Below, in pieces: positions 56,437-58,136 of a stretch of 64,000 bases of DNA; position 1 is the first letter of the stretch; every line of letters starts with the position of its first letter. The notes under the pieces are model-generated. The model was not told where the DNA came from, ran no database searches, and was given only the letters and a program-made list of their open reading frames with translations. Origin of the DNA: Rubritalea profundi (GTDB lineage Bacteria; Verrucomicrobiota; Verrucomicrobiia; Verrucomicrobiales; Akkermansiaceae); assembly GCF_002954445.1 (NCBI RefSeq), contig NZ_MQWA01000001.1, positions 833,931-897,930 on the forward strand, given 5' to 3'. Made by a program: the position numbers and the translations under genes.

Positions 56437-56949
56437 TCACTTTGCCGCTTTGGCAGCAGCTATCGCGTCCTGAGATTGAGAGGTCGGAGTGGCTTTTAGA
56501 TCCGCCCAGATAATCTTGCCATCTTTGACTAGGAAGCTTTGTCGAGCAGCAAATTTCCCAGCCCTCGCTGTCACTCCAAACGCCTGCATCACCTTAGTGT
56601 CCGCATCCGCAACCAATGTGAATGGCAGCTCGTACTTTGTAGCAAAAGCTTTTTGTTGGGCTGGCTTGTCACCAGACACCCCGATCACCTCGATCCCTGC
56701 AGCTTTGACATCTTCAAAAGCATCTCGCAGATTACAGGCCTGCTTTGTGCAGCCTGGGGTATCCGCCTTTGGGTAGAAATAAACGAGAGTCAGTCCGCTA
56801 GCAAACTTAGCACCGAGATCGATCACCTTATCGTCTTGGTCTTTTGCGGTAAGTTTAGGGGCATCAGCCCCCACTTCTAAAGGGGCTGCGGATACAAAGC
56901 CCGCACAGACTAGAGAAAGTAGTGAGCTCACAATCGATTTCAGTTTCAT
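56437..56949 (-). CDS. Bcp/PrxQ-type peroxiredoxin with signal peptide
   Basis: About 170 residues from ATG 56949, which opens a signal peptide (MKLKSIVSSLLSLVCAGFVSA). The peroxidatic cysteine is in ADTPGCTKQACNLRDAF, with resolving Cys four residues later, the PrxQ/Bcp arrangement. YFYPKADT and FTLVADADTKVMQAFGV are also typical. It reduces peroxides outside the cytoplasm and needs a thiol donor; the thioredoxin-like gene 99 bp upstream on the same strand is a candidate partner. Confidence 0.88.
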   Translation of the reverse strand: MKLKSIVSSLLSLVCAGFVSAAPLEVGADAPKLTAKDQDDKVIDLGAKFASGLTLVYFYPKADTPGCTKQACNLRDAFEDVKAAGIEVIGVSGDKPAQQKAFATKYELPFTLVADADTKVMQAFGVTARAGKFAARQSFLVKDGKIIWADLKATPTSQSQDAIAAAKAAK

Positions 56950-57047
56950 AACCAGCACTATAGCAAGAAGCTGAGCTCTGCAAATAGAAATCTCCCATAT
57001 GACCAATAATTGTCAGTTAGAAGATTCAAAAATAAGCTCAGTTCTCT

Positions 57048-58136
57048 TTACAAACCTTCCAGAAACCTTCCACCACCACGGGGAGATCTGTCCCCTCTAC
57101 GCCCTTGACCCGGTTTGTGTTCATCTATTTTCCCGTCGCCATCGCGGTCTTCACCTTGCTGGATGTTATTCTCAAATTTCACTCCCTCACGACGGCCTTG
57201 ATTGACATGTTTCCCGTAGTCCTTTCTTTTCTCAAACTCGGAAAATTTCTTATTCATTGCTAGCAAGTCGGCTTTGAGTCCCCTGGGAGAGACATCCAGC
57301 GGCAAAGCCTTCACTACAATTCCATCCTGCCCAAACTCATGCGATCTTATAAGGAAAATACCAGTTTTTGCATTCACATTCTTGAGTGATTCAGCCCACT
57401 TCACATCTCCCTTCCCAGCGATATCAAAATGGAATTTCCCACTAACACTCGGATTATTAAATACCGCCCGCAATGTCTTTTTCACACTCGTCATTTTACT
57501 CTGAGGTGACACTGTAAATACTAACAAACGCTGATCGGCTGAGGCAACATTCAAAGATTGTTTAAAACTATCAAAGTCCTGCAAGACCTCCTGATTTGGA
57601 GAACCTTTGACTTTGTATTTATCCGCAATTTTCCCCATCTCATCAATCACCGGCGCGATGTCCTTAGACCCACGTCCTCCGAGAATTGACTGTGGGCTGC
57701 GGTGAGATCGCGTCAGCTTCGTCTTCCCGTCTGGAGCATAAACGACAAACGCCGTATTCTGCATCGAGCCGCTCAAGAGATCACGGATACGATCTTGAGT
57801 TTCCTTATTTTCGTAGGTTTCTAGACGAATGCATACGAATTTTTTTGAGGCTTCGATAAAGTCTTTTTGTGAGAGCAAACTGATCTCAGTTCCTTTATAG
57901 CCTGGTCAGAAAGTGCCAGAAACATCACCACACTGTGCTGCCGCCGCATAAAAAAAGATCGGTCTGTTGCTCCGCTGAGCTTCTTCAAGCCCAGTCTTCC
58001 AAGTGGTGTACCACGCCACTCCTTGCTCACCAACCGGCTGGGAAATTGCTCCCAATTGCTCCGGACGCGGCCCTTGAGCTGGAGCTAGCCCGCACAATGC
58101 TAGGCTCGTTGCCACCGTGAAAATCGTCTTAGTCAT
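57048..58136 (-). CDS. Thioredoxin-like secreted protein with in-frame UGA (candidate selenoprotein)
   Basis: One continuous frame of 362 codons contains a single internal TGA at 57906-57908 (codon 77). Upstream: signal peptide (about 1-20), TWKTGLEEAQRSNRPIFFYA and QCGDVSGTF. Directly after the TGA, PGYKGTEISLLSQKDFIEAS and KKFVCIRLETYEN continue the thioredoxin-fold pattern without a frame change. A Cys or Sec fits the TGA position in the active-site segment. The TGA is followed, 15 nt downstream, by AACTGAGATCAGTT (57891-57878), a 5-bp stem with loop AGAT. This fits the bacterial SECIS rule of a short stem with G in the first two loop positions, 16-37 nt after the UGA. Residues about 295-360 hold a DRDGDGKID calcium-like loop and an Arg/Gly-rich tail. 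No sel genes are in the window. Confidence 0.6.
57878..57891 (-). promoter_or_regulatory. Candidate bacterial SECIS hairpin
   Basis: On the minus strand AACTG-AGAT-CAGTT: five Watson-Crick pairs (a G-U pair can extend it) closing a 4-nt loop with G at position 2. The loop begins 20 nt after the in-frame TGA. It is coding sequence at the same time, as bacterial SECIS elements are. Confidence 0.5.

What the first reader, a model, noticed from the sequence alone, without database searches (positions are those of the whole stretch)
57048..58136. Candidate new selenoprotein: thioredoxin-like protein with in-frame UGA and SECIS-like hairpin
The sequence shows one uninterrupted frame of 362 codons with a single TGA at codon 77, good protein on both sides and no frame change. 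The residue before the TGA is Phe in QCGDVSGTF and the residues after are PGYKGTE, a thioredoxin-fold active-site position where Cys is expected. An exact 5-bp hairpin with loop AGAT begins 15 nt after the TGA. Known rule for bacterial SECIS: short stem-loop 16-37 nt downstream with G in the first two loop bases. The gene precedes a secreted peroxiredoxin, a natural redox partner. The other broken genes in this window are indels; this one is not, which argues against the same error source. That Sec is really inserted is inference.
Basis: partly seen in the sequence, partly recalled or inferred. Interest (0 to 1): 0.88.

Follow-up and report, generated by a model that had tools for sequence, protein, structure and literature searches.

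The report
Selenium protein family without cysteine version
This gene, from a bacterium of or near the genus Rubritalea, almost certainly makes a protein that carries the rare selenium amino acid selenocysteine, and it belongs to an apparently undescribed family in which no ordinary cysteine version was found, which would make it easy for current gene finders to miss.

Summary
On the minus strand (58136 to 57048) one 362-codon frame holds a single TGA at codon 77. It is not an error: all 78 distinct homologues read at this codon have TGA (Verrucomicrobiota, plus four records titled as planctomycete groups); none has Cys. The genome has tRNA-Sec(UCA), selA, selD (with its own Sec codon) and selB (split by one frame change). 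selA is in 34 of 35 genomes with the gene and 28 of 107 without. A SECIS hairpin lies 24 nt after the UGA: synonymous codons are completely frozen only at codons 84-88, its core pairs covary, and a second subfamily keeps the loop position with a different stem. The peroxiredoxin neighbour is not conserved either. The protein looks exported and has two thioredoxin-like domains; the first has C-x7-U-P-G instead of CxxC, so Cys69 is the likely resolving residue. No NCBIfam model fits, nor, by stated motif and model, any of 119 families in a 2026 review. Best reading: a new selenoprotein family, possibly Sec-only. Sec insertion and activity remain to be shown at the bench.

The parts
57048..58136 (-). 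Selenoprotein gene, 362 codons plus TAA; ATG at 58136
57906..57908 (-). In-frame TGA, codon 77, read as selenocysteine
   Evidence: TGA in 78 of 78 distinct homologues
57870..57888 (-). bSECIS hairpin (nt 21-39 counted from the T of TGA): UGAGA(U)C-AGUUU-G(C)UCUCA, apical loop 24 nt after UGA, G at loop position 2
   Evidence: 60-nt fold; 78 of 78 with G in the first two loop bases; core helix 97.6% paired
57873..57887 (-). Codons 84-88, the only stretch with complete synonymous freezing
   Evidence: Ser86 is AGT in 25 of 25 against background 111 of 631; Leu87 is TTG in 25 of 25 against 93 of 571
57878..57891 (-).
57930..57932 (-). Codon for Cys69, invariant in both protein alignments; likely resolving residue (C-x7-U)
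57831..57833 (-). Codon for Cys102, invariant in A1 and at least 90% in A5
58074..58136 (-). Signal-peptide-like N-terminus (MTKTIFTVATSLALCGLAPAQ); export is inferred
   Evidence: sequence; similar hydrophobic N-termini in relatives; no signal-peptide program was run
57606..58016 (-). N-terminal thioredoxin-like (Thioredoxin_7 / DsbD-gamma-like) domain with Sec77
   Evidence: 3f9u Z 10.6; 2fwe Z 9.7
57228..57590 (-). C-terminal thioredoxin-fold domain without any Cys in this protein
   Evidence: 2trx Z 9.9
57123..57149 (-). DRDGDGKID, EF-hand-like calcium-loop motif near the C-terminus
   Evidence: motif recognised from memory
56437..57006 (-). Downstream peroxiredoxin-like gene; same strand, synteny not conserved

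Best explanation
The gene encodes an exported selenoprotein of an undescribed family. UGA-77 is decoded as selenocysteine by SelB and tRNA-Sec, directed by a SECIS hairpin inside the reading frame (apical loop A-G-U-U-U, 24 nt after UGA). The product has two thioredoxin-like domains. In the first, Sec sits at the position of the attacking Cys of a CxxC motif. The second Cys of CxxC is Tyr (Lys in the second subfamily), and an insertion before the Sec brings an invariant Cys69 (C-x7-U). Inferred mechanism: Sec77 attacks a disulfide or a peroxide and the intermediate is resolved by Cys69 as a selenenylsulfide; the Cys-free second domain helps bind a substrate or partner. Shown here by sequence: UGA conservation, SECIS, Sec machinery, predicted fold. 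Inferred: Sec insertion itself, export, redox reaction, resolving residue.
For: Genome: tRNA-Sec 49.6 bits, over cut-off, anticodon TCA; selA 496 bits; selD 376.5 bits with in-frame TGA at CGG-U-ASK; selB 267.7 bits, over cut-off. Homologues: 35 of 142 genomes including the own one, the best match in each with an in-frame TGA; 30 of 30 read loci have TGA at the aligned codon; 63 of 63 genome-contig loci that cover it; 78 of 78 distinct in all. UGA also serves as the terminal stop of several of these same genes (L021, L022, L026, L029, L030 and others), so it is not a sense codon by default. SECIS: complete synonymous freezing at codons 84-88 only; 71 of 78 have all four core pairs plus a loop G, against a synonymous-codon null with mean 15.8 and maximum 27 in 2000 draws; 27 cells with changes on both sides against 3.0 shuffled, 0 of 500. 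Second subfamily (L117, L139, L153 twice, L154-L157): C-x7-W-U-P-G-K, stem CAGG/CCUG (CGGG in L157), loop again 24 nt after UGA. Co-occurrence with selA: 34 of 35 against 28 of 107, Fisher p 1.3e-14, not corrected for phylogeny. In the 41 genomes with the family (35 plus 6 from the class search): selA 40 of 41, selB over cut-off 38 of 41. Fold: pLDDT 85.7, pTM 0.83.
Against: selB of this assembly is split by one frame change near L009:2560; open frames of mostly 631-669 aa in relatives make an assembly error likelier than loss. In L036, L043 and L046 the probability is 0.08, 0.38-0.39 and 0.43-0.44. Of the measures, the number of pairs with two-sided changes was reached by 9 of 500 shuffles and the number of pair types by 137 of 500. 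The model is weakest at the active site (residues 80-83 under pLDDT 50). One family genome, G008 (83% complete), shows no selA; G001, G003 and G116 show no selB over cut-off. No experiment shows Sec.
Confidence: 0.95

Rival explanations
1. Sequencing error or pseudogene: TGA is a wrong base call or a fixed nonsense mutation.
Against: The same codon is TGA in 78 of 78 distinct homologues, including the type strain Rubritalea marina DSM 17716 (L062) and a record not labelled as a MAG (L099); protein conservation continues after it.
Confidence: 0.01
2. The gene ends at UGA-77 on purpose, and the downstream frame is a separate gene or read-through without Sec.
For: A 76-aa product is possible; UGA is also a normal stop here. 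The codon TTG at position 87, a possible start codon at which the ORF finder begins its 276-aa ORF, is conserved in 25 of 30 members.
Against: That TTG is GAG in the other 5 of 30 and is CTG, GTG, GAG or other codons in further members. The thioredoxin-like domain spans the UGA; Sec machinery and SECIS go with it.
Confidence: 0.03
3. Selenoprotein as described, but not a family of its own: a divergent branch of the VPGUxxT or Trx7/PDZ selenoproteins that annotators would merge with them.
For: Weak NCBIfam matches: NF041199 in 17 of 30 members (best E 0.0079), NF041382 in 9 of 30 (best 5e-4), TsoB NF045694 in 6 of 30 (best 0.0044); Sec at the same thioredoxin position, judged by eye, as in VPG-U-xxC proteins of related genomes.
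Against: The window protein scores 11.9 bits against a cut-off of 300 for NF041199 and has no NF041382 match at E 1; no CxxC or UxxC; extra Cys69; second thioredoxin-like domain.
Confidence: 0.12
4. Cys-containing orthologues exist but were missed, so the family is an ordinary Sec/Cys family.
For: Only one pattern scan of 84,980 species and three searches of 142, 387 and 384 genomes were run; the Planctomycetota phylum was not searched by profile (one search failed).
Against: One of the two scan patterns, as printed, has Cys at position 77, yet all 63 confirmed loci covering it have TGA; all 15 full-length matches in 14 genomes of the class search have one TGA inside.
Confidence: 0.35

Closest known systems
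VPGUxxT thioredoxin-like selenoproteins (NF041382, NF041383)
   Same: Thioredoxin-like domain with Sec at what is, by eye, the first Cys position of CxxC; proteins of this type, matching NF041382 below its cut-off, occur in relatives
   Different: Those in relatives keep a resolving Cys (for example VPG-U-AGC); here U-P-G-Y/K with Cys69 upstream and a second thioredoxin-like domain; the window protein has no match to the model at E 1
Trx7/PDZ selenoprotein (NF041199)
   Same: Weak alignment over residues 41-108; can contain Sec
   Different: CxxU motif by the 2026 list (PMC13188914, section read) and a PDZ domain by its name; 11.9 against 300 bits
PrdC form 2 (UPGQ motif, TIGR04481, in the 2026 list)
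   Same: The letters U-P-G
   Different: An electron-transfer protein of proline reductase by its name; no TIGR04481 match in any of 30 members at E 1
DsbD gamma domain / TXNDC12-type thioredoxins
   Same: Predicted fold of residues 36-177 (3f9u, 2fwe, 2lst by VIA-align; 1sen by Foldseek)
   Different: They have CxxC and no selenium (recalled); here no second Cys in the motif
PDI-family tandem thioredoxin proteins (QSOX1, ERp44, calsequestrin)
   Same: Two successive thioredoxin folds
   Different: TM-scores by query length only 0.20-0.26 with large rmsd: a shared arrangement, not shown homology

Membership tests
Bacterial selenoprotein | In-frame UGA conserved among homologues with protein similarity on both sides | tested here: met
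   78 of 78 distinct sequences
Bacterial selenoprotein | Host has selA, selB, selC, selD | tested here: met
   selB interrupted by one frame change in this assembly
Bacterial selenoprotein | Sec found in the protein | not testable with these tools
   needs mass spectrometry or 75Se
[quoted passage not shown]
   24 nt; G in 78 of 78
bSECIS (model quoted in PMC13188914, section 5) | Free energy at most -7.5 kcal/mol | tested here: inconclusive
   window: -4.8 for 39 nt, -10.3 for 60 nt
Usual selenoprotein pattern (statement in PMC12013277) | Cys-containing homologues exist | tested here: inconclusive
   0 of 78 family members within the searches; only distant single-domain CxxC thioredoxins; search not exhaustive
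Thioredoxin_7 (PF13899) | Score over gathering cut-off (27 bits) | tested here: not met
   13.6 bits for the window protein; all 30 members match at E 1 or less, best 5.6e-6
Thioredoxin-fold oxidoreductase | Thioredoxin fold | tested here: met
   predicted model
Thioredoxin-fold oxidoreductase | CxxC, UxxC or CxxU active site | tested here: not met
   U-P-G-Y or U-P-G-K
VPGUxxT (NF041382) | Score over 350 bits | tested here: not met
   no match of the window protein at E 1; no match over the cut-off in 142 genomes
Trx7/PDZ (NF041199) | Score over 300 bits | tested here: not met
   11.9 bits

The most novel reading that the evidence does not exclude
A bacterial selenoprotein family that uses selenocysteine only: genomes that lack the Sec machinery lack the gene rather than carry a Cys form, because the C-x7-U-P-G active site without a CxxC needs selenium chemistry. 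It would contradict the statement in the deep-Sep paper that all known selenoproteins now seem to have Cys homologues, and such families would be filtered out by pipelines built on Cys/TGA pairs.
Probability: 0.55. Interest if true: 0.78.

Novelty: new variant of a known kind. Interest (0 to 1): 0.68.

Why it matters
Bacterial selenoprotein finders lean on Cys homologues. PMC12013277 (passage read) says that its method may lose selenoproteins without Cys homologues and that all known ones now seem to have them. A family present in many Verrucomicrobiota with Sec codons in 78 of 78 members and no Cys form found is a likely counter-example, and a test set for Cys-free detection by codon freezing plus SECIS covariation. 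It also offers an unusual redox motif (C-x7-U-P-G) and a direct way to ask when Sec cannot be replaced by Cys.

Tried and rejected
No result: Rfam in 57700-58000 (none at E 10); plasmids (none); viral contigs (31 pattern matches, none confirmed); solved homologues by sequence (none for the single protein; two at E 0.56 and 0.98 with the profile, taken as chance). NCBIfam hits of single members (for example XopAW 1.4e-6 and CT795 2.5e-4, each in 1 of 30) were taken as EF-hand or low-complexity matches and not followed.

I still reject it because its inner pairs fail in 64 and 57 of 74 rows.

Rows dropped before counts: L051 and L118 had no match over codon 77; L050 and L052-L054 are distant CxxC thioredoxins; the G001 fragment (L143) was not printed by my script, though one search gives one TGA; partial matches G067:C62, G094:C39 and G004:C318 were not read. 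104 entries collapse to 78 by identity over 120 nt from the TGA. Four of 68 pattern stretches were not confirmed and not seen. L118 (record titled Gammaproteobacteria) matches only residues 126-287, upstream frame broken. My first de-duplication dropped L087 by a slicing fault; it is. My first neighbour test used a wrong frame for the peroxiredoxin; repeated. In one search several VPGU loci printed a wrong frame and were not read.

Papers: PMC13188914: outline, abstract, section 5, section 7 parts 1 and 2 of 3, passages. PMC12013277, PMC2398784, PMC4807772: passages. Others: search listings. No description of this family was found in searches (open-licence PMC only). Deng et al. on groundwater genomes, cited in PMC13188914, did not turn up and could list this family.

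Full report
What is there. On the minus strand, 58136 to 57048, one frame of 362 codons holds a single TGA at codon 77. The ORF finder splits it into a 76-aa and a 276-aa ORF, as an annotator unaware of Sec would. The N-terminus looks like a signal peptide (inference). The host is of or near Rubritalea: G010, given as the same genus, has a contig of the same length (110,966) as the Rubritalea marina record L062; inference.

The genome can decode Sec. It holds a tRNA-Sec with anticodon TCA (49.6 bits, over the family cut-off), selA (496 bits), selD (376.5 bits) whose own site is CGG-U-ASK with TGA, and selB (267.7 bits over model positions 1-332, with a C-terminal piece of 20.2 bits in another frame). 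The selB frame changes once near L009:2560; relatives mostly have single frames of 631-669 aa. I take this as an assembly indel, which is inference.

The codon is TGA in every member read. With the protein (Cys letter at 77) as query, 35 of 142 genomes including the own one match, the best match in each with an in-frame TGA. At the aligned codon 30 of 30 fetched loci have TGA. A scan of 84,980 species genomes gave 64 loci; 63 cover the codon and all 63 have TGA; one of the two scan patterns, as printed, has Cys there. A profile search of 387 genomes of the phylum gave 3 full-length members, none new, and 5 short matches (the four read at this codon are CxxC thioredoxins). One of 384 genomes of the class gave full-length members in 14, six of them new, each with one TGA, and 13 with short matches only. 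After collapsing duplicates there are 78 distinct sequences, 78 TGA. Four of the scan's records are titled Pirellulaceae, Phycisphaeraceae or Phycisphaerae (L058, L075, L087, L117); I did not test them for contamination.

The SECIS. Counting T of TGA as 1, nucleotides 22-36 (codons 84-88) show complete synonymous freezing: Ser86 is AGT in 25 of 25 against 111 of 631 in the background, Leu87 is TTG in 25 of 25 against 93 of 571. Codons 79, 81, 83 and 107 show a partial excess; most others are near background. The frozen positions form a hairpin: core stem 24-27/33-36 with variable outer pairs, loop 28-32 (AGUUU in 55 of 78, CGUGA in 14, GGUCU in 4, five others once each), G in the first two loop bases in 78 of 78, loop 24 nt after the UGA. 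On 74 distinct rows 97.6% of core cells pair; 27 cells have changes on both sides against 3.0 in shuffles; slid controls reach at most 49.7%. The number of pairs with two-sided changes (4) was reached by 9 of 500 shuffles and the number of pair types by 137 of 500. All four core pairs form with a loop G in 71 of 78, against a mean of 15.8 and a maximum of 27 in 2000 synonymous redraws. L094, L101 and L109 replace A25-U35 by U25-A35. In the second subfamily (L117, L139, L153 twice, L154-L157) the stem is rewritten (C24-G36, G26-C34, G27-C33) with the loop in the same place. The window's own version has a U-C mismatch at 26-34; seven of 74 rows, it included, lack a standard pair there. Its pairing probability is 0.52-0.59.

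Co-occurrence. selA occurs in 34 of 35 genomes with the gene and 28 of 107 without (Fisher p 1.3e-14, uncorrected for phylogeny; selA at E 0.001, two of the 62 below the family cut-off, both without the gene). The exception, G008, is 83% complete. In all 41 genomes found with the family, selA is in 40 and selB over cut-off in 38. Genomes without the machinery seem to lack the gene rather than carry a Cys form.

The protein. AlphaFold with the 30-row alignment gives pLDDT 85.7, pTM 0.83 and, two thioredoxin-like domains. Residues 36-177 match DsbD-gamma-like structures (3f9u Z 10.6, rmsd 3.1 over 122; 2fwe Z 9.7), residues 183-297 match thioredoxins (for example 2trx Z 9.9). All 30 members hit Pfam Thioredoxin_7 at E 1 or less, best 5.6e-6; the window protein itself is below the gathering score. 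Against distant CxxC thioredoxins (L050, L052-L054; for example DW-CPPC), local alignment puts Sec77 at the first Cys, and Tyr80 then stands at the second. Cys69 is invariant in the 30-row alignment and in the 22-row one, which includes both subfamilies; Cys102 is invariant in the first and at least 90% in the second. Past the signal peptide the window protein has only Cys69, Sec77 and Cys102, so the resolving residue is one of the two Cys or comes from outside; Cys69 in the insertion before Sec is my choice (inference).

Neighbours. The peroxiredoxin and the gene on the other side do not recur in the DNA held around 63 genome-contig loci and 29 others. The peroxiredoxin is thus no evidence of partnership across the family.

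Known or new. NCBIfam release 20.0 gives only weak matches to thioredoxin-like selenoprotein models (best E 5e-4, 0.0014); the window protein has 11.9 bits against a cut-off of 300. I read the whole table of 119 families in the 2026 review. None has C-x7-U-P-G-Y/K by its stated motif; the nearest in letters is PrdC form 2 (UPGQ), whose model no member matches. Families in that table without a stated motif or an NCBIfam model were not all tested. The deep-Sep paper says all known selenoproteins now seem to have Cys homologues and that its filter may lose those without. My paper searches found no description, but the library lacks most subscription papers, and the groundwater study did not turn up.

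Verdict. A real selenoprotein gene (0.95), a new family or at least a new variant of thioredoxin-like selenoproteins, and possibly a Sec-only one (0.55).

Noticed in passing
L160 (minus, 646-1839), L166 and L167 (plus, TGA at 583 and 601): Another thioredoxin-like frame with a shared in-frame TGA, motif PILLWAMNG[NH]PCGET-U-NNG (C-x3-U), followed by a possible stem-loop with loop GGUC (GGUCU-GGUC-AGACC in L160, read by eye, not folded). No NCBIfam match at E 1 for L160 and L166. A second candidate selenoprotein family in these relatives.
   Followed up: partly
L009:1495-3401 (own genome, C1 about 1020800): selB is split into two frames by one frame change near L009:2560, probably an assembly indel.
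   Followed up: partly
L014, TGA at 1531: selD of the own genome carries an in-frame TGA at MAACGG-U-ASK, the known SelD Sec site.
   Followed up: yes
L128, L130-L133, L137, L138: Relatives carry VPG-U-xxC proteins that match NF041382 only below its cut-off; L124, L125 and L135 have Cys there.
   Followed up: no
L153, TGA at 669 and 1791: One genome (G695) has two copies of the second subfamily in tandem, both with TGA.
   Followed up: no
window 57123-57149: EF-hand-like calcium-loop motif DRDGDGKID near the C-terminus, at least 90% conserved at its main positions in the 30-row alignment, absent from L117 and L139.
   Followed up: no
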